Below, piece after piece: positions 36,100-45,931 of a DNA stretch of 51,366 nucleotides. The stretch's first letter is position 1. Each line of letters starts with the position of its first letter. Made by a program: the position numbers and the translations under genes. The DNA is from Aquificaceae bacterium (lineage in GTDB: Bacteria; Aquificota; Aquificia; Aquificales; Aquificaceae): the NCBI GenBank assembly GCA_027014155.1, contig JALWEG010000010.1, positions 1-51,366 on the forward strand. The letters run 5' to 3'. The notes under the pieces are model-generated. The model searched no databases. It was not told the DNA's origin and was given only the letters and a program-made list of their open reading frames with translations.

Positions 36100-38424
36100 A
36101 TGTTTGGTCTAAAGTGGATAGGGACAAATCTTTTAGCTCTCTCACCCGAAGGAGATACGAGCGAGCTTTTTCCCGTATTCGCTGAGGAACTTACTACCTT
36201 AGGATTAGATAAATTCCTTAGGTTCCATAAAGATGCCAAAGCGCCCCTTCTGTGGGGAAGGGATATAAATCAGTTTGTTGAATACTACCAAGACGGCGAA
36301 CTCATAGCTAAAATAAGAAAAGGTGCTCTTTATAAAAACCACGAGATAGAGTATATCCGTGAAGGGATAGAGCTTACTCCTATAGATATCAACAAGCTAT
36401 GTGAAGTGAACTACAAATATATGAATGACCTTATCAATGAGGCTCTTGATTATATACACCTTGAGAGAAAGAGACTTGGCAAGGAAGGATACGCTCTCAC
36501 GGTCTCCTATAGTGGGGGTAAAGACTCTCAAGTGGTGCTTGATTTAGTCCTTCAGGTGATTCCTAACGAAGAGCTTTATGTTGTTTTCACGGATACGAAG
36601 ATGGAGCTTCCTGAGACCTATTACATGGTGGATTGGACGGAAGAGTATTACAAACAATTTTATCCTTCCTTCAAAATACACAGGGTTGGTTCGGTATTTG
36701 ATACCGCTGAACTTTGGAAACTTTTCGGACCTCCCAGCAGGATAAAGCGCTGGTGCTGCAGCGTTTATAAGATAGCTCCTCAAGTCAAATTCTTTGAGCG
36801 GATAGGCTCTAATAACTTTTATAAAACAATACTCGTTTTTGAAGGGACAAGAGCGGATGAAAGCACACGGCGAAGCTGTTATGAAAGAACCTCACCCAGA
36901 GAAAAGACCTTTAGGGAAATAAATCTGAAACCCATCTTCAGGTGGAATACTTTTGAAGTATTCCTGTATCACTTTTATAAAGGTCTTAAGATAAATCCGC
37001 TCTATAGGAAAGGTTTAAGAAGAGTTGGTTGTAGCGTATGTCCCTTTGCAAGCACATGGTCCGAATACATAATCCAGAAAGAGTATCCTGAGCACGCTAA
37101 GGAGTTCATTTCTGTCCTTAAAAATTACGCCAAGAGAATGGGAATATCCACAGAGAGCGAAATGAAGGACTACATATCCTCCGGAGCGTGGAAGGCAAGA
37201 GCAGGTGGGCTTGGACTTGAGAATGATGTGTGGGTTGAAGTAGTAAAGAATGGCTCCAAGATGAAGGCTGTTATAGACAACTGCAGGGAAAACATCACAG
37301 AGTGGATGAAAACTGTAGGTAACGTTCATATATTGAAAAATACAAACAATCATACCTCTGGTGAGCTAAGAGTAGGCTCTGCTGTTATTCACTTTGATAT
37401 AAAAAAGGAAAACAACAGACATATTGTACATTTTGGAAATGTTGACCCCCATCCTGCGATATACAAAAAACTGGAGAATGTCCTTTACAAAAGTGCATAC
37501 TGCCTACACTGTACCGGATGCGAGGTTGAGTGTCCATACCACGCGGTAATGACTTATCCCAAGGTAGTTGTCAATCCTGCAAGGTGCACCCATTGCGGTA
37601 ATTGCCTTGAGTTTATAGAGAGGGGGTGCTATGTGGCGGAGTCGTATAATATGTATTTACAACCTAAATTAAAGAAGGCAGAGAAAGTGAGGATGGATAG
37701 ATACAATACTTTTGGGCTCCGCAAGCCTTGGCTTGAAAGTTTCTTAGAAAGAGGCTCAGAGTGGTTTACAAACAATATACTTGGTCCAAAGCAAAAGGAG
37801 GCCATGAATAGATATCTGTTTGATATAGAACTTATAGATAGAAAGAAAAACTTAACTGAACTTTTTGAAATATTATCCAAGCTACTTTACAAGGATCTAA
37901 ACACCGTTTGGCAGGTAGTGTGGGTAAACCTATGTATAAACTCAGACCTCTTCAGATGGTATGTTCAAGAAATTCCTTGGAACAAGAGCTGGTCCAAGAG
38001 TGAGCTTGTATCTTTACTTGAGCAAAAAGGAATTGCGCATAGGACAGCACAGAACTCTATAAACGCCCTCGCAAACACCTTTCAAACATCTCCCCTCGGA
38101 AGTTGGTTCGGTAGAAAAGAAAATAAGAAGGTCTTTTACAAAGGGGGGACAAATGAGATTAGCCTTTGGGCTATTGGATATGCCCTTTACAAACTCAAAG
38201 AATTAAAAGGTTGGAAAGGAACGAGTATAAGGGAAATTTATAGTTTGGAAGACACGGGACCGTATGCTTGGTTCGGCATATCAAAGGATAGCTTTGTAAA
38301 GAAGCTCATATCTCTGAAAGACCGCAAACTCATATCCGCTGACATAGTAGCAGACCTTGATAACATTCACTTTTACGATATTGAATCACTTGATATACTG
38401 AAAGTTGCACTTAATGAGTTTTAG
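36100..38424 (+). CDS. brxP: BrxP: PAPS-reductase-like BREX protein with ferredoxin and DUF4007-like domains
   Basis: The 774-residue protein has four parts. Residues 1-125 are an N-terminal region of unknown role. A PP-loop ATP-pyrophosphatase domain follows, with SGGKDS at 138-143, VFTDTKMELPET, WCC at 218-220, FEGTRADES and a CSVC pair at 311/314 that may bind a cluster, as in DndC. A two-cluster ferredoxin domain carries C468, C471, C474, C478 and C496, C499, C502, C510. From about 536 to the end lies a DUF4007-like domain beginning FGLRKPWLES. By analogy with DndC, it would activate DNA for sulfur insertion, so phosphorothioation is the leading hypothesis. No cysteine desulfurase is adjacent. 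Assimilatory sulfate reduction is unlikely given the context. Confidence 0.9.
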   Translation: MFGLKWIGTNLLALSPEGDTSELFPVFAEELTTLGLDKFLRFHKDAKAPLLWGRDINQFVEYYQDGELIAKIRKGALYKNHEIEYIREGIELTPIDINKLCEVNYKYMNDLINEALDYIHLERKRLGKEGYALTVSYSGGKDSQVVLDLVLQVIPNEELYVVFTDTKMELPETYYMVDWTEEYYKQFYPSFKIHRVGSVFDTAELWKLFGPPSRIKRWCCSVYKIAPQVKFFERIGSNNFYKTILVFEGTRADESTRRSCYERTSPREKTFREINLKPIFRWNTFEVFLYHFYKGLKINPLYRKGLRRVGCSVCPFASTWSEYIIQKEYPEHAKEFISVLKNYAKRMGISTESEMKDYISSGAWKARAGGLGLENDVWVEVVKNGSKMKAVIDNCRENITEWMKTVGNVHILKNTNNHTSGELRVGSAVIHFDIKKENNRHIVHFGNVDPHPAIYKKLENVLYKSAYCLHCTGCEVECPYHAVMTYPKVVVNPARCTHCGNCLEFIERGCYVAESYNMYLQPKLKKAEKVRMDRYNTFGLRKPWLESFLERGSEWFTNNILGPKQKEAMNRYLFDIELIDRKKNLTELFEILSKLLYKDLNTVWQVVWVNLCINSDLFRWYVQEIPWNKSWSKSELVSLLEQKGIAHRTAQNSINALANTFQTSPLGSWFGRKENKKVFYKGGTNEISLWAIGYALYKLKELKGWKGTSIREIYSLEDTGPYAWFGISKDSFVKKLISLKDRKLISADIVADLDNIHFYDIESLDILKVALNEF

Positions 38425-39007
38425 CAGATACTTAACCTTCGGTCTACGCGACGTCTGGCTGGAAAGTTTCTTATATAGACCAGATGTCTGGCTTGAGGAA
38501 AACACACTTGGTCCTGAACAGATAAAGGCTTTTAAAAAGTATATGAAGGACGCGGAGCTAATTGATAGGAGAGGGAATTTAACTCCGTTGGCTTGGAAAA
38601 TGTCGGAGCTATATGCAGAAGACAAGGATGCGGTTTGGCAGATAGTTTGGCTTAACCTATCCCTGAATTCACCTCTTTTTAACTTTTACTGTTCTGAGGT
38701 TCCTTGGAAAAGTACATGGACTAAGGATAAACTCGTATCCCTGATAAAAGGGAAAGGCTATGCGGAGCGCACCGCAAGGAATGCTGTAAATGCCCTCGTT
38801 AATACTTTTGAAAACTCCCCCCTTGGAGAGTGGTTCGGCAAAAAGGTGGAAAAGAGTAAGTACTCTAAAGAGGCTCTTAGCAACCTGAGCCTATATGCTC
38901 TAAAGTATGCCCTTAACAAACTGGGAGAAAGAGCAGAAGCTTTTGAAAGGATATTCGGAATGGACAACCAGGACTTCCATTACAACCTGATGAAGCTTAA
39001 AATATAA
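38414..39007 (+). CDS. Stand-alone DUF4007-like protein, paralogue of the BrxP C-terminus
   Basis: The 197-residue protein aligns by eye along much of its length with the C-terminal third of BrxP: FGLRDVWLESF against FGLRKPWLESF, LGPEQIKAFKKYMKDAELID against LGPKQKEAMNRYLFDIELID, WQIVWLNLSLNSPLF against WQVVWVNLCINSDLF, and ENSPLGEWFGKK against QTSPLGSWFGRK. The pattern R/HRTA.N..NAL.NTF occurs in both, which suggests a winged-helix-like DNA-binding fold. The copies have diverged widely, so the duplication is old. The ATG at 38414 overlaps the brxP stop by 11 bp; the upstream TTG is less likely. I infer a role in target recognition or assembly with BrxP. Confidence 0.85.
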   Translation: MSFSRYLTFGLRDVWLESFLYRPDVWLEENTLGPEQIKAFKKYMKDAELIDRRGNLTPLAWKMSELYAEDKDAVWQIVWLNLSLNSPLFNFYCSEVPWKSTWTKDKLVSLIKGKGYAERTARNAVNALVNTFENSPLGEWFGKKVEKSKYSKEALSNLSLYALKYALNKLGERAEAFERIFGMDNQDFHYNLMKLKI

Positions 39008-39013
39008 TCTTAA

Positions 39014-42000
39014 ATGAAGCATAAGGATTTAATAGAGATAAGGAGGGATTACAGACCGGTTTTCACTCTTGGGCAAGAGGAGAGTGAGCTTCACTGGAAG
39101 TCTTTCATACCCCATACTAACTTCCTTGAGCTCCTGCAAAAGGTGATTAATATTGTAGATGGAAAAGACAAAAGAACCGCTCTATGGCTCCAGGGTTCTT
39201 ACGGTGTCGGAAAAAGCCATGCCTGTAGCGTGGTTGCTCACCTACTTTTTGACCCATTTGAAGAAATAAAAGACTACGTAGAAAAAGACATACAGAACCC
39301 CCAGGTAGTAGGACTTATTAAAAATCTGAGGAATAGAAAGAGGTTTATTCCCGTGTATCTGATAGGAACTGGAGATGTCCCGGATTTGGGGTATATGGGT
39401 TTCTATGTAAGGAACCATATAAAAAATAAACTCAGGCAATTGGGATTAGATACCCCCGTGCTACAAACGGAAGTAGAGCTACTGATAGAGCATGTTAAAA
39501 AAGAAGACGAGGACCAAATTCTTGAAAGAATTCCCAAATATAATTCAAAATCGGCTCTACTGGAAGACCTGAAAAGGAATCCACCCGATAGAGATGCTTT
39601 AAAAGGAGTTTACGATTACTTTGCGAGAAAAGGCATACATATATTCAAAGATATCAAAGAATGGCTGAAGGAAGTTAATGACACAATTAAAGAAGCAGGT
39701 TATGACGGGATATTGCTTATATGGGACGAATTTACACAGGTCTTGGATACAGGGCTAAATCACTTAGAGAAACTTCAAAATCTACTTGCTGAAAACCCTA
39801 ACCTTTACTTAATCGTAGTCAGCCATAGGATGGCTGATTTCTACAAAGAACAGTTTGGAGAACAAACTTATAGGAAGGTTGCCGACCGCTTTGTCCACCA
39901 TAAGCTTGAGCTTGCAGAAACTACAGTTTTCCAGATATTAAAGAGGGCTTTGGACAGAAAAGATAGATGGGCAGAGGTTTGCAGCTCAAGGTTTTCAAGT
40001 TTATCCTACTTGGTTAACCACATAACTAAGCTTTTTGAGGTTCAAAGACCAAAGGCGGAAGACATACGAAACCTTTACCCGTTGCATCCATACACCATAC
40101 TCCTTGCCACCCAAGTCGCTGAGAAGTTCCTTTCTGCAGGGAGAAGTATATTTGGTTACCTTTTTGAAGAAAATGGAGCATTGAACAAGCTCATGGAAAA
40201 GGATGTGGAGGAAGAACCTTTTCTCACAGTGGATACCCTGTGGGATTACTTCCTTGAGCAGATAGGAGAAAGAGATTATGGAGATTTTGCACGGGATATT
40301 GTAAACCATTACAGCAATCATAAAGATAGAGTTAGAGAGTTTGGGAAGGATTACGTTAAAGTGTTTAAAACCTTGATGATACTCAATCTACTTTACAAGT
40401 TTACAGACTATCCACAAAGTTATCTACATCCCACCCGGGAAAACGTTAAACTTGCCTACACAGGGACTCCTTTGGAAAGTAAGATAAACAGCATATTAGA
40501 AATTATACATAGGGAAGGTATTTTACAGAAAAACCCGGACGGTAAATATATGGTTCTTTCTTCTTACTTACCTGAAGAAGAACTAAAAGAGGAAGAATCA
40601 AGATTAAAAAGTGGATTTAAAGATGCTTATAAGGTCATCAATACTTATGTTAGAGAACAAGTGGAAGAGTCTTTGCTGAAGGATTTCTACAGAAAAGTAG
40701 AGGTTTTTATACTTCCCCCAGATGAATCATACAGATACAAAGTAAGATCTACTTATAGACTTCCGCTGGTGGTCGGTTTTCCTAAAACACCCGCAGAGAA
40801 AGAAGCGTATAAAGAAAAGTTCCAAAACGCTTCACAACAATTTCCCAACGCCATATTTATAATTTGGGGTGATGAGATTGGGGAAAGCAGATTATCTGAG
40901 TGGATAAAGTGGAAAGCAAGAGAAAAGGTGGCAGATAGCCATAGATTATATGAAGAGAAAAATTATGCCGCGAAGATGGCAAACAAAATCTTAGAAGATT
41001 ACCTAAATAGAGATGCTTATCTGACCTTATATTTTAGAGGAGTTGGAAATACAATATCAAAGAGAGACATACCTCGTTATCTAAAACAATATTCTGCAGA
41101 AATATTCAATAAAGGTCCTGAAGCATTAGGTATTGAAAACAGAAATCTTTGGGACAAATCAGGAAAGGGTTTATTATCTAAGCTAATAAAAAGTCAGAGA
41201 CTTGATGAGTTAAAAGGTCATATATCACGAGGACCAGAGAAAGATTTACAAGAAGCGCTTTACGATATAGATAGGAAAGAAATCTTTCTTGAAGATTTAT
41301 CCTTAAACCCCAAAGCCGATCCAAGTCATCCGATAGTAAGCTTGTCAGGGGAAATTGAAGAAAAGTTTAAAAACAAACAGAGATTAAGAGTGGAAGACCT
41401 GAAATTCTTACGGGAGCCACCTTACGGACTCTACAACAATAAAATAAGCGCCTTTATATTAGCAACAGCTTTAAAGCCTTTTCAAAATAGGTTATATAGA
41501 GTAGGAGTTGGTAGAGCTTCACTTACGGATTTAGAGAATTTCTCCCGGAGTATTTTGGAAGAAAAAAGAAGCGATATAGAACTCCGCTACGGAAGCGAAA
41601 GTGAGGATAAGCTTGAAGGTTTTCTAAAAGATATATTTGGGAACCTTGTACCCTTTAAGGAAGAAGACAATGACCTAATAAGGGTTAGAAACACAATACG
41701 AGATAAGATAAGGAGTTTAGGTTTTCCTATATGGTCATTGGCTCATCTTGAAGATAAAGAATTAGAAAATCTTCACCAAGATGTGGAATTTTTAAGGGGA
41801 ACCATCAGGGAACTATCAAAATTTATAGCAAGTTCCGATGCCGAATTTAAGGATAATTATATTCTACAGTTAAGTAATAAAATTGAAAAACTCAAAAATA
41901 CTTTAAAGCGCTTATTAGACGAAGAGAACCTTACACAGGGTATGAGGTCTTTCATAGAAAGAAAGATAGGGAAAAGGCAAATAGACAAAAAAGGGTTAGG

Positions 42001-42331
42001 TAAAAAGCTTAAAGAAGAAATGTCTCAAAATGCAATCTTTTGGGATGAAAGTGAGGTTTCCAGTAAAGTGGATAAAATAATAGAAGATATGGAAAGAACA
42101 ATTTCAGAACAGCCAAAATCCGTTATCGAAAAACCTTATACTAAAGCAGAATTGCCAAGAGTAGAACCTATTATGGTCTCGCCCGCAGAATACAAAGAGC
42201 CGGACTTAAAGGAACATTTGCAAAGCCTGAACCATTCACAATTGGTAAATTTAATACTTAATATCTTAGATGAGTATCCTGAGATAAAGAATTCAATTAA
42301 AAAATGGCTAAAGTTAATGGATCATGCATAA
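39014..42331 (+). CDS. brxC: BrxC: large BREX P-loop ATPase
   Basis: The 1105-residue protein has an AAA-type ATPase domain near the N-terminus: Walker A GSYGVGKS at 61-68 and Walker B ILLIWDE near 233-239, then VVSHRM sensor-type residues and a long helical remainder with charged coiled-coil segments toward the C-terminus (about 920-1010). Size, motif placement and operon context match BrxC/PglY. In BREX the ATPase is needed for both modification and phage exclusion, probably as a DNA-associated motor or assembly platform. It starts 6 bp after the DUF4007-like gene and overlaps pglZ by 8 bp. Confidence 0.9.
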   Translation: MKHKDLIEIRRDYRPVFTLGQEESELHWKSFIPHTNFLELLQKVINIVDGKDKRTALWLQGSYGVGKSHACSVVAHLLFDPFEEIKDYVEKDIQNPQVVGLIKNLRNRKRFIPVYLIGTGDVPDLGYMGFYVRNHIKNKLRQLGLDTPVLQTEVELLIEHVKKEDEDQILERIPKYNSKSALLEDLKRNPPDRDALKGVYDYFARKGIHIFKDIKEWLKEVNDTIKEAGYDGILLIWDEFTQVLDTGLNHLEKLQNLLAENPNLYLIVVSHRMADFYKEQFGEQTYRKVADRFVHHKLELAETTVFQILKRALDRKDRWAEVCSSRFSSLSYLVNHITKLFEVQRPKAEDIRNLYPLHPYTILLATQVAEKFLSAGRSIFGYLFEENGALNKLMEKDVEEEPFLTVDTLWDYFLEQIGERDYGDFARDIVNHYSNHKDRVREFGKDYVKVFKTLMILNLLYKFTDYPQSYLHPTRENVKLAYTGTPLESKINSILEIIHREGILQKNPDGKYMVLSSYLPEEELKEEESRLKSGFKDAYKVINTYVREQVEESLLKDFYRKVEVFILPPDESYRYKVRSTYRLPLVVGFPKTPAEKEAYKEKFQNASQQFPNAIFIIWGDEIGESRLSEWIKWKAREKVADSHRLYEEKNYAAKMANKILEDYLNRDAYLTLYFRGVGNTISKRDIPRYLKQYSAEIFNKGPEALGIENRNLWDKSGKGLLSKLIKSQRLDELKGHISRGPEKDLQEALYDIDRKEIFLEDLSLNPKADPSHPIVSLSGEIEEKFKNKQRLRVEDLKFLREPPYGLYNNKISAFILATALKPFQNRLYRVGVGRASLTDLENFSRSILEEKRSDIELRYGSESEDKLEGFLKDIFGNLVPFKEEDNDLIRVRNTIRDKIRSLGFPIWSLAHLEDKELENLHQDVEFLRGTIRELSKFIASSDAEFKDNYILQLSNKIEKLKNTLKRLLDEENLTQGMRSFIERKIGKRQIDKKGLGKKLKEEMSQNAIFWDESEVSSKVDKIIEDMERTISEQPKSVIEKPYTKAELPRVEPIMVSPAEYKEPDLKEHLQSLNHSQLVNLILNILDEYPEIKNSIKKWLKLMDHA

Positions 42332-44513
42332 AACTATAGATAATCTAAACGATTTTCAAGCTAAATTTTGGAGCGAATTAAGCAATCCATATAGTAGAAC
42401 CTTAGGAGTTAGAATAATATTAGTTGACAGCTTTGAAGTTCTTAGAAGTATAGAGAAAGAGCTTTTACATCTACGTAGAAAAACGAAGTATTTGGAAGAC
42501 TATATTCCAGAGGGGAAAAATTGGCTATCCATAAACGACATAAAGAATTTAATAGAGGATTTTATAAAAAAGAACGACATAGTTTATCTATTTTCATTGG
42601 ACAATTTACTCCGATTTTACAGCACTGATGAGCTAAACAGCCTGCTCCCAAACATTTTGAGAATAAGAACAAACAAAGGTTATGCGATTTTACCTTTGGC
42701 AGGCTTAAAAGAAAGGATAAAGGATATAAAGGGTATAAGAGAATTTTATAAAGACTTGATTTACGAAGTGACAGCTACGGGGAAAAAGGTTAAGATGTTC
42801 GTATTAAATCCGAAGATAAACATTAAACTTAAATGTGTAGAAGATTTCAGAGAGTTCTTAGGTTGTTGGAGATTGCAAAATACCGAAATCTATGTAAAGA
42901 ACAGAGTAATTTACTCAAGCTACAAAAACGCTTACCCTGATACAGCGGTTGATGTTGTTGGGATTGAAAACTATAAGGACGTTTTGAGAAAAGTTGTAGG
43001 TTTTAAAGACAAAATATATTTCACCGATAAGAACTATGAAAAAGGATTGGCAGAAGAAGTTTTAGAAAAAAACTTGCATTCCTTCAAGGATATGTTCCCT
43101 TCCATTAAAGATTTTGCAGATTTTGTAAAACATTTTTTGAAGGAAAGGAATGAACTTAAGCGTAAGTCTCTATTAAATTTGGCTTACAACTATATGTCAG
43201 GCTATAAGAGCATTCTTAAAGAGGATAAAGTAGCTTTCTTAAAAAATATATATAGAGGAAATTTGGATCAAGGCGATAAATATAGATTTTTATCTATAGC
43301 TATAAAAGCAGACTCTTCATTTGAACGTTTACTTTGCGAAGAGCTGGATGAAAGTATAAAAAAAGAAAACATAATTGGAATTCTGGAATGTGAGAAAAAG
43401 AAAGCTTTGGAGCTTATTACGCAAGGGAAAATATCTTTAGAGGAATTACAGGCTCAGTTTGAAGACTTTGCGGCGTATCTTGATACTCCAAAACCGCCAA
43501 ACCTTGAGGAAAACCAAAAATGGGTATTGGATTATATGAATTTATACAAGGAAAGTAAATTACGGAATAAGGCATTAGCAGAGCTTGAAAGTTTACTTAA
43601 TAACATTAATAGAAGTGGAAATTTTTATAACTGGTATTACTCATTTAAATGGATATTGGATATAGCTACAGAGTGGAAGGACGAAGCTGAAAGAATTGTC
43701 TGGATAGACGCTCTCGGATTTGAATGGGCAGGCTTTGTTTTGAATTACTTAAAAAGTAAAGGGATTCCTGTTCACGCTTTCCACATATGCAGAGCTAACC
43801 TTCCTTCAATCACCGAGACAAACAAACCAAATTTTGAAGTTTTGGAAATGCGTGAATTTGATAATTTAATTCACCAAAGGTATAAGTTTCCAGATTCAAT
43901 TATTAAGGAAATGAACAAGCTTAAAGAAATCTTAGACAAAGAGATAAATGTGGAAAAGAGAACACTTATATTTTCAGACCATGGAAGTTCTGCTCTCGTA
44001 AGACTGCATCAACCCATTAAGCTTTCTACAGGCATTAAGTTTGAACATGGTGGCAGGTTTTTTAGAGGGCCTCTCGGGTATGAACCTAAAGAGGTTATAA
44101 AGCACACAGAAGGTGTTGAATATTTCTATGTTGCTACAACTCACAAGTCTATTGGGACTAAACCTCAAGGTGAAGCACATGGAGGAGCTACACCAGAAGA
44201 AATACTTACATTTGCTCTTATAGTAGGCGGACAGGAGGAGATTTCCTACAGTGTGGACCTTCCTGAGCGAGAAATTAGCAGAAGGAATAATAAGTTAGTG
44301 GTTTACATAAGACCTGTGCCAAAGGTTAATGTGGAGCTTGTTATAGATAAGAAACCTGTAGAGTATGCATTAGACAAAGAGCGTAGGTATGTAATAGATT
44401 TAGCCGGTATAAGGTCAGGCGATCATACTCTTGAAATAAAAATAGGGTCCAATATCTATAGGGAACCATTCCGTATAATCGGCGGCTTAGAGGAAGAGGA
44501 GTTCCTAATATGA
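42324..44513 (+). CDS. pglZ: PglZ: alkaline-phosphatase-superfamily BREX protein
   Basis: The 729-residue protein has an N-terminal helical region and a C-terminal PglZ domain of the alkaline phosphatase superfamily. Metal-site candidates are the Asp of IVWIDALGFEW near residue 460, the Asp and His of IFSDHGSSA near 550, and the His of GEAHGGATPEE near 617. A small beta-rich tail follows (VVYIRPVPKVNVELVIDKKP to the end). PglZ is the signature protein of all BREX types and is needed for defence and modification; it may act as a nuclease or phosphodiesterase. It overlaps brxC by 8 bp and brxL by 4 bp. Confidence 0.93.
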   Translation: MHKTIDNLNDFQAKFWSELSNPYSRTLGVRIILVDSFEVLRSIEKELLHLRRKTKYLEDYIPEGKNWLSINDIKNLIEDFIKKNDIVYLFSLDNLLRFYSTDELNSLLPNILRIRTNKGYAILPLAGLKERIKDIKGIREFYKDLIYEVTATGKKVKMFVLNPKINIKLKCVEDFREFLGCWRLQNTEIYVKNRVIYSSYKNAYPDTAVDVVGIENYKDVLRKVVGFKDKIYFTDKNYEKGLAEEVLEKNLHSFKDMFPSIKDFADFVKHFLKERNELKRKSLLNLAYNYMSGYKSILKEDKVAFLKNIYRGNLDQGDKYRFLSIAIKADSSFERLLCEELDESIKKENIIGILECEKKKALELITQGKISLEELQAQFEDFAAYLDTPKPPNLEENQKWVLDYMNLYKESKLRNKALAELESLLNNINRSGNFYNWYYSFKWILDIATEWKDEAERIVWIDALGFEWAGFVLNYLKSKGIPVHAFHICRANLPSITETNKPNFEVLEMREFDNLIHQRYKFPDSIIKEMNKLKEILDKEINVEKRTLIFSDHGSSALVRLHQPIKLSTGIKFEHGGRFFRGPLGYEPKEVIKHTEGVEYFYVATTHKSIGTKPQGEAHGGATPEEILTFALIVGGQEEISYSVDLPEREISRRNNKLVVYIRPVPKVNVELVIDKKPVEYALDKERRYVIDLAGIRSGDHTLEIKIGSNIYREPFRIIGGLEEEEFLI

Positions 44514-45931
44514 CACAACTGGACGAAAAGATAAAAGATATCTTTGTTGAGGAAAGTGTTTATAAAGATGATAGGGTGCGAGCCATCTTCTCCGGTTGGA
44601 ATATTCCTTCCTTTATAAAGGACTGGCTAATCAACAGATACACAGACAAAATGAGTGGGAAAATTGACAAAGAAGGAATACTGGAATTCTTAGAAAGATA
44701 TATGCCATGGAGAGGTTTAAAAGGAGAACTTGTTAATCACCCATATCGTTCTTATAAGGTATTAGCTCGTATAATTACCGAACCTGATGTGAAGAAAGGT
44801 ATCATAAGGTTTCATATTCCTGACTTGGGTATTAAACCTGAAGAGGGAATAGTATCTTCTAAACTTCTATCCAATCGAGAGGGTAAGCACCTTTCTATGG
44901 GAGAATTCTGGGGCGTTTGTGAACTTACTTATGTAAAAGAAGTTGATAAACCGGGTTATATAGAGCTTTCTAATTTTAAACCTTTTAAACCTTATAAAGT
45001 TAACCTGGATTACTATGTAGAAGCCAGAAAGGAATTTACCACACAAGAATGGATAGACGTGCTAATTAAGTCAATGGAATTTAATCCTAATGCGCTAAGC
45101 TTTGATGAAAAACTATTGCTGTTATGTAGATTAACAGTATTTGTGGAACCGAATTTGAACCTTATAGAGTTGGCTCCTAAAGGGACAGGTAAATCTTACG
45201 TGTTTTCAAACCTATCAAAGTATGGTTGGATTATGAGCGGAGGTTTCGTTTCAAGAGCCAAGTTGTTCTATGATCTTCAGAAAAAAGCTGAAGGAATCAT
45301 ATCAAGGTATGATTTCGTAGTTATAGATGAAGTTCAAACTGTTAAGTTTAATGATGAAAATGAAATACGAGGCATATTGAAGAGTTATCTTGAAAACGGA
45401 ACATACAATGTAGGCGACTTCAAGGGTGTTTCAGCAGCAGGATTTGTAATTTTGGGCAATATACAATTAACCGAGGAAAGGAAACCTAAGCAAAGGTGGT
45501 ACTTTGAAGAGCTTCCTAATGTTTTTCAAGAATCTGCACTAATAGACAGGTTCCATGGTTTTATAGAGGGTTGGAAACTGCCCAGGTTTAATGAGAGCTT
45601 GAAGGTTAAAGGGTATGCCCTTAACGTAGAGTTTTTCTCGGACATACTTCACATGCTTAGAGGGAAAGGGGAATATTCCACCTTTGTAGGAGATATCTTA
45701 GAAATCCCTGTCAAGGCAGATACACGAGATAAAAAAGCAATAGTTAAGCTAACCACAGCCTTACTTAAGCTTATATTTCCCAATATCCCTTTGCGAGATC
45801 ATGAAATAAAAGAGTTCAAAAACTTCTGCCTCGGCTTAGCGAAGGATTTAAGGAAGGTAGTAAAAGAGCAACTATATATCATGGATGCTGAATACAATAA
45901 GGAAATACCAGATATAAGAGTCGTAGCTTAA
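44510..45931 (+). CDS. brxL: BrxL: AAA+ BREX protein, short form
   Basis: The 473-residue protein begins with a DNA-binding-type N-terminal region (about 1-190), followed by an AAA+ ATPase domain with Walker A APKGTGKS near 222-229, Walker B FVVIDEVQ near 270 and FVILGNI as a sensor strand. It then stops about 80 residues after FHGFIEGWKLP. The Lon-like C-terminal domain known in the longer type 1 BrxL (about 680 residues) is not visible. BrxL forms DNA-encircling multimers and is required for phage exclusion. It overlaps pglZ by 4 bp and ends 3 bp from the convergent AEC gene. Confidence 0.88.
   Translation: MTQLDEKIKDIFVEESVYKDDRVRAIFSGWNIPSFIKDWLINRYTDKMSGKIDKEGILEFLERYMPWRGLKGELVNHPYRSYKVLARIITEPDVKKGIIRFHIPDLGIKPEEGIVSSKLLSNREGKHLSMGEFWGVCELTYVKEVDKPGYIELSNFKPFKPYKVNLDYYVEARKEFTTQEWIDVLIKSMEFNPNALSFDEKLLLLCRLTVFVEPNLNLIELAPKGTGKSYVFSNLSKYGWIMSGGFVSRAKLFYDLQKKAEGIISRYDFVVIDEVQTVKFNDENEIRGILKSYLENGTYNVGDFKGVSAAGFVILGNIQLTEERKPKQRWYFEELPNVFQESALIDRFHGFIEGWKLPRFNESLKVKGYALNVEFFSDILHMLRGKGEYSTFVGDILEIPVKADTRDKKAIVKLTTALLKLIFPNIPLRDHEIKEFKNFCLGLAKDLRKVVKEQLYIMDAEYNKEIPDIRVVA

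What the first reader, a model, noticed from the sequence alone, without database searches (positions are those of the whole stretch)
37705..39007. Tandem duplication of the DUF4007-like module in BREX
The C-terminal third of BrxP and the separate 197-residue protein share a run of matching motifs (FGLR..WLESF, LGP.Q..A, WQ.VW.NL, SPLG.WFG). A fused and a free copy side by side suggests either a heterodimer or a free subunit that swaps target specificity. I do not know of a description of this free copy in type 4 BREX.
Basis: partly seen in the sequence, partly recalled or inferred. Interest (0 to 1): 0.7.

Follow-up and report, generated by a model that had tools for sequence, protein, structure and literature searches.

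The report
Duplicated DNA-binding module in BREX-4 operon
A phage-defence operon in a heat-loving bacterium carries the same predicted DNA-binding module twice, once fused to its sulfur-transfer enzyme and once as a small gene directly behind it; this extra copy occurs in a minority of such operons, seems to have arisen at least twice, and could be a second reader of target DNA, though nobody has tested that.

Summary
BrxP residues 530-718 and the next gene (197 aa, ATG at 38414) align at 47% identity (E=9e-57). The genes belong to a complete type 4 BREX operon (brxP-[free copy]-brxC-pglZ-brxL, 36100-45931) in an Aquificaceae genome. Both copies are predicted with high confidence (pLDDT 94.5, 96.5) to share the fold of SspB, the DNA-binding subunit of Ssp phosphorothioation systems (Z 21.2, 15.3). 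The free copy lacks the last wing and C-terminal helix. In this sample it is not a standard part of type 4 BREX: all 82 loci with a visible brxP-brxC junction have the fused module, 12 also a free copy (Aquificaceae 4 of 4). Trees plus lineage-specific indels favour at least two origins. The free gene is under purifying selection and overlaps brxP. PADLOC already lists one such protein as 'BrxP' (PDLC02511); I found no text describing the pair. Most likely it is a second SspB/BrxA-like DNA-reading subunit of the modification complex; heterodimerisation and specificity change are untested. In many Bacteroidales the same slot encodes a stand-alone phosphorothioate-reader (SBD) homologue. A modest new variant of a known system.

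The parts
36100..37674 (+). brxP, N-terminal part: type 4 N-terminal domain, PAPS-reductase domain (residues 133-315) and ferredoxin-like 4Fe-4S region (residues 463-505)
   Evidence: PF01507 E=2.6e-29 and weak Fer4 matches; PDLC02510 BrxP 724.7 bits
37675..38424 (+). brxP, C-terminal fused SspB/DUF4007-like module (residues 526-774, HTH + two wHTH), ending at the stop codon
   Evidence: AlphaFold2 pLDDT 94.5, pTM 0.92; SspB 6juf Z=21.2 over 246 of 249 residues
38414..39007 (+). free SspB/DUF4007-like gene, 197 aa from ATG (200 aa if TTG 38405 is the start); overlaps brxP by 11 nt
   Evidence: 47% identity to the fused module; pLDDT 96.5, SspB Z=15.3 over 196 of 197 residues; dN/dS 0.07 against L020
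39014..42331 (+). brxC/pglY ATPase
   Evidence: PDLC02472 BrxC 351.6 bits, also similar to SspC models
42324..44513 (+). pglZ, BREX-4 type
   Evidence: NF033445 BREX_PglZ_4 297.9 bits, cut-off 140
44510..45931 (+). brxL, Lon-like ATPase/protease
   Evidence: PF13337 E=9.5e-114; TIGR02688 460.7 bits

Best explanation
The operon is a type 4 (phosphorothioation) BREX system in which the SspB/BrxA-like DNA-binding module of BrxP has been duplicated. Shown: the free copy is a homologous three-module HTH/wHTH protein, trimmed after the third recognition helix, kept by purifying selection and placed for translational coupling with brxP. Inferred: it joins BrxP and the BrxC ATPase on DNA as a second, enzyme-free DNA-contacting subunit. 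It most likely pairs with the fused module, as SspB was crystallised as a dimer whose interface is needed for function, so that one half carries the sulfur-transfer enzyme and the other only reads or holds DNA. That would extend or change the site that is sulfur-modified and guarded.
For: Homology and shared fold. SspB dimer, metal binding and need for interface residues as reported in PMC9240713. Overlapping genes in all four Aquificaceae loci. Purifying selection, dN/dS about 0.07, close to brxP at 0.05. Repeated origin: a 10-row free set held as one clade is rejected, p-AU 0.0026, and lineage-specific indels agree. All free copies lie in the slot between brxP and brxC. The same slot carries a PT-reader (SBD) homologue in 15 Bacteroidota loci, never together with a true free copy, which suggests a slot for auxiliary DNA readers.
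Against: No interaction, binding or co-folding data. Most type 4 loci do without the free gene. Both window modules keep the same core: 47 positions identical in all eight Aquificaceae sequences and no fixed fused-versus-free difference, so no sequence sign of changed specificity. The SspB dimer interface was not mapped on these models.
Confidence: 0.45

Rival explanations
1. The free copy serves the restriction arm rather than the modification arm. Like the separate BrxA of type 1 BREX, it brings BrxC, PglZ and BrxL to DNA without the sulfur-transfer enzyme, separating sensing/restriction from modification.
For: The free gene is next to brxC; the BrxA structure 7zge is the free model's third hit, Z=10.4; in other BREX types the BrxA-like unit is a separate gene (PMC12839542).
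Against: Most type 4 loci have only the fused module and presumably restrict. The overlap with brxP suggests stoichiometric pairing with BrxP.
Confidence: 0.28
2. A modulator: the shortened free copy competes with BrxP's own module for DNA or BrxC and limits modification or restriction.
For: Aquificaceae free copies lack the last wing and C-terminal helix; co-production with brxP.
Against: Free copies outside Aquificota keep nearly the full module (255-267 aa in most), so truncation is not general.
Confidence: 0.12
3. A by-product of duplication without a distinct role.
For: Only a minority of loci carry it; tandem duplication is a common event.
Against: Purifying selection, intact reading frames in all four Aquificaceae loci, probable repeated origin.
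Confidence: 0.1
4. A single ancient free paralogue, with the Aquificota copy made to look like its fused neighbour by gene conversion (a rival about origin, compatible with any function).
For: Holding all 13 free copies as one clade is not rejected on the full tree, p-AU 0.216.
Against: None of 200 bootstrap trees of the full set makes the free copies one group; the reduced set rejects one clade, p=0.0026; Aquificota free and fused copies share a wing deletion, other free copies share a different one. Gene conversion itself was not tested.
Confidence: 0.2

Closest known systems
BREX type 4 (brxPCZL)
   Same: All four core genes in the usual order; BrxP fused to a DUF4007/SspB-like module as in all sampled loci with a visible junction.
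   Different: An additional free copy of the module between brxP and brxC, in 12 of 82 sampled junctions.
PADLOC model PDLC02511 ('BrxP', 265 aa)
   Same: Represents the free module: the free protein of locus L017 (G170) matches it end to end at 636 bits.
   Different: Named BrxP as if it were the reductase; the Aquificaceae free copies match it only weakly (72-74 bits) and are shorter.
SspB of SspABCD phosphorothioation systems (PDB 6juf, 6lb9)
   Same: Fold over nearly the whole length of both modules (Z 21.2 and 15.3); Ssp also has SspC and SspD homologues of BrxC and BrxP.
   Different: SspB is a free protein; here the module is both fused and free. Sequence identity is 11-19% in the structural alignments. 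Nicking activity is untested.
BrxA of type 1 BREX (PDB 7zge, 3bhw)
   Same: Shared HTH/wHTH arrangement (Z about 10).
   Different: BrxA is reported as a monomer and is a single separate gene (PMC9240713).

Membership tests
BREX type 4 | BrxP with PAPS-reductase domain | tested here: met
   PF01507 E=2.6e-29; PDLC02510 724.7 bits
BREX type 4 | BREX-4 PglZ | tested here: met
   NF033445 297.9 bits against cut-off 140
BREX type 4 | BrxC/PglY ATPase and BrxL in the same operon | tested here: met
   PDLC02472 351.6 bits; PDLC02505 628.5 bits; TIGR02688 above cut-off
BREX type 4 | DNA phosphorothioate modification | not testable with these tools
   Needs mass spectrometry or PT-seq
DUF4007 / SspB superfamily (both copies) | Match to Pfam PF13182 above its gathering score | tested here: not met
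   No match at E<=1 for either window protein; the related free copy in L037 passes at 27.8 against 27 bits
DUF4007 / SspB superfamily (both copies) | Remote homology to a DUF4007 protein | tested here: met
   Profile A3 against a PF13182 member: 97.4% probability, E=1.5e-11, 247 columns. The small profile A4 of non-Aquificota free copies alone gave no significant match
DUF4007 / SspB superfamily (both copies) | SspB fold over the whole module | tested here: met
   Fused Z=21.2 over 246 of 249; free Z=15.3 over 196 of 197 residues
SspB | DNA nicking activity and functional dimer | not testable with these tools
   Reported for SspB in PMC9240713; no multimer tool, no assay
PADLOC PDLC02511 free BrxP | Full-length match to the model | tested here: inconclusive
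   Window free copy 71.8 bits over model positions 16-155 of 265, and 150 bits to PDLC02510; same superfamily, probably a separate duplication

The most novel reading that the evidence does not exclude
The position between brxP and brxC is a slot for interchangeable auxiliary DNA readers in type 4 BREX: a second SspB-like module (gained at least twice) in thermophilic and anaerobic lineages, and a stand-alone phosphorothioate-sulfur reader in Bacteroidales. In the window the fused and free modules form an asymmetric pair that sets a different modification/recognition site.
Probability: 0.3. Interest if true: 0.6.

Novelty: new variant of a known kind. Interest (0 to 1): 0.4.

Why it matters
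How type 4 BREX chooses sites and tells its own phosphorothioated DNA from phage DNA is not settled in what I could read. Loci with a free second module, and loci with a stand-alone PT reader in the same slot, are natural variants that allow this to be tested by deleting one small gene. It also warns that PADLOC's 'BrxP' label can fall on a protein with no reductase domain.

Tried and rejected
The free gene as a universal type 4 component: rejected in this sample, 12 of 82 junctions, although all six intact loci of the first small search had both copies, which was misleading. 'Free' pieces in L057 and L078: these are broken parts of the fused module, not extra genes. Sequence search of the solved structures with the module profiles found no relative; only fold comparison found SspB. 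A profile of the eight non-Aquificota free copies gave no significant match to a DUF4007 protein and was too diverse to scan viral contigs. Fixed fused-versus-free differences among Aquificaceae: none. A cysteine desulfurase in the operon: none; Aminotran_5 family proteins (the fold family of cysteine desulfurases) exist elsewhere in the genome. An empty-site comparison with close relatives was inconclusive, because the flanking genes lie on different contigs in the same-genus genome. Goldfarb 2015 and Yuan 2024 are not held; paper supplements could not be read, so a mention of the pair there is possible.

Full report
Observation. The window holds five overlapping or nearly abutting + strand genes (36100-45931): brxP (774 aa), a free protein (197 aa from ATG 38414, 200 aa from TTG 38405), brxC (1105 aa), pglZ (729 aa), brxL (473 aa). 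PADLOC and NCBIfam identify a type 4 BREX operon. BrxP residues 530-718 and the free protein share 47% identity over 189 residues, E=9e-57. The free gene overlaps brxP by 11 nt; the other three Aquificaceae loci also show overlaps of 4-8 nt. The operon has 37.6% G+C against 52.1% for the rest of the window, as in an acquired island.

What the module is. AlphaFold2 models of the fused module (249 aa, pLDDT 94.5) and the free protein (197 aa, pLDDT 96.5) are confident. Both have SspB of the Ssp phosphorothioation system as best structural match, far above the rest: Z=21.2 over 246 residues and Z=15.3 over 196 residues; BrxA and FokI's DNA-binding region follow at Z 8-10. A profile of the module matches a Pfam DUF4007 protein at E=1.5e-11 over its whole length, although Pfam's own model misses the window copies. 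This agrees with PMC12839542, which describes DUF4007 in type 4 BREX as a BrxA-like HTH-wHTH-wHTH unit homologous to SspB. The free copy keeps the first two modules and the recognition helix of the third ('FG.....F...L..L'), but lacks the final wing and C-terminal helix.

How common it is. I collected relatives by the N-terminal part of BrxP only, so that the fused or free module did not steer the choice. The 80 genome loci kept are those most similar to the window out of 164, so the sample is biased. Of 82 loci with a visible brxP-brxC junction (73 from genome contigs, 7 from viral contigs, the window and L017), all have the fused module, in two of them (L057, L078) broken; 12 also have a free copy, always directly between brxP and brxC. 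L052 (Cryosericum) appears to have two free copies. Aquificaceae: 4 of 4 type 4 loci. Coprothermobacterota: 4 of 9 genomes have matches; three clearly hold both forms (one with a stop codon inside one match) and one is fragmentary. Others are Thermodesulfobacteriota, Caldisericota and uncultured bacteria. The annotated Methanosphaera plasmid locus has the fused form only.

Origin. In a tree of 98 modules the four Aquificota free copies sit with the Aquificota fused modules (100/99), apart from the other free copies; the label needs two changes, and none of 200 bootstrap trees needs only one. The AU test did not reject one free clade on that full set (p=0.216), which contains very long branches. 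On a 38-row set without the long free rows it did (p=0.0026); that set was chosen after seeing the first tree. Indels agree: Aquificota fused and free copies share a shortened wing after SPLGxW that no other lineage shows, whereas the other free copies share a 2-3 residue deletion before the second recognition helix (clear in eight, the ninth, L052_free2, being unclear) that neither Aquificota free copies nor fused modules show, apart from a one-residue gap in L026 and L052. Two origins are therefore favoured, not proved; gene conversion between neighbours was not tested.

Is it kept? Between the window and L020, dN/dS is about 0.07 for the free gene and 0.05 for brxP, with dS near saturation so that ratios are rough. 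The free copy diverges no faster than brxC or pglZ. Reading frames are intact in all four Aquificaceae loci.

How it may work. Established for relatives: Ssp and type 4 BREX make phosphorothioates (PMC11931770); SspB was crystallised as a magnesium-bound dimer, has reported nickase activity and depends on interface residues (PMC9240713). Inferred: the fused module places BrxP's sulfur-transfer domains on DNA with BrxC; the free module is a second DNA-contacting subunit in the same complex, most simply as the partner of the fused module. Whether this changes specificity is unknown: no fixed fused-versus-free differences exist among the four Aquificaceae pairs. The main rival is that the free copy serves restriction in place of BrxA.

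A related finding. In 15 loci, all from Bacteroidota, the same slot holds a protein of about 150 aa (broken in L088). Two tested members match SBDHga1 (PDB 8h0l), a sulfur-binding domain, at E=1e-11 and 7e-11. The lysine and the proline that correspond by motif to ScoMcrA R117 and P165, key residues for sulfur binding (PMC6224610), appear conserved, while the residue corresponding to H116 is alanine in most. No locus has both this gene and a true free SspB-like copy. I found no paper in the library that links an SBD to type 4 BREX.

Comparison and verdict. The operon is type 4 BREX. The free module is an extra member of the SspB/DUF4007 superfamily. PADLOC includes one such protein as a 265-aa 'BrxP' (PDLC02511), matched end to end by L017's free protein. 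I found no text describing the fused and free pair, but supplements and two key papers could not be read. I judge it a new variant of a known kind, interest 0.4.

Noticed in passing
L065, L071, L074, L076, L078, L082, L083, L086, L088, L089, L090, L092, L093, L094, L096: ORF between brxP and brxC (e.g. L086:12358-12783 +): A stand-alone homologue of the phosphorothioate sulfur-binding domain (PDB 8h0l, E about 1e-11) inside type 4 BREX operons of Bacteroidota, in the slot where other lineages have the free SspB-like gene. Similar domains also occur within ORFs some distance downstream of brxL in L069, L070, L077, L084 and L099.
   Followed up: partly
L030:267-3860 +: In a Methanothermococcus MAG one open frame joins BrxP, its SspB-like module and a C-terminal piece of BrxC (1198 aa), the N-terminal ATPase part of BrxC being absent; a deletion fusion or an assembly error.
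   Followed up: no
L052:12305-13941 +: Candidatus Cryosericum has two consecutive free, very divergent SspB-like genes behind brxP.
   Followed up: partly
L103, L104, L106-L112, L114, L116, L117, L120 (viral contigs): Viral contigs encode BrxP-like PAPS-reductase proteins without the SspB-like module, often two in tandem (L106-L110) and apparently three pieces in L120; role unknown.
   Followed up: no
window 36100-45931: The operon has 37.6% G+C in surroundings of 52.1%, and in relative G012 the equivalent operon lies on a different contig from the gene that flanks it here, as expected for a mobile island.
   Followed up: partly
PADLOC PDLC02511: The PADLOC model named BrxP contains no reductase domain and matches only the SspB-like module, so it may lead to false calls of BrxP.
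   Followed up: partly
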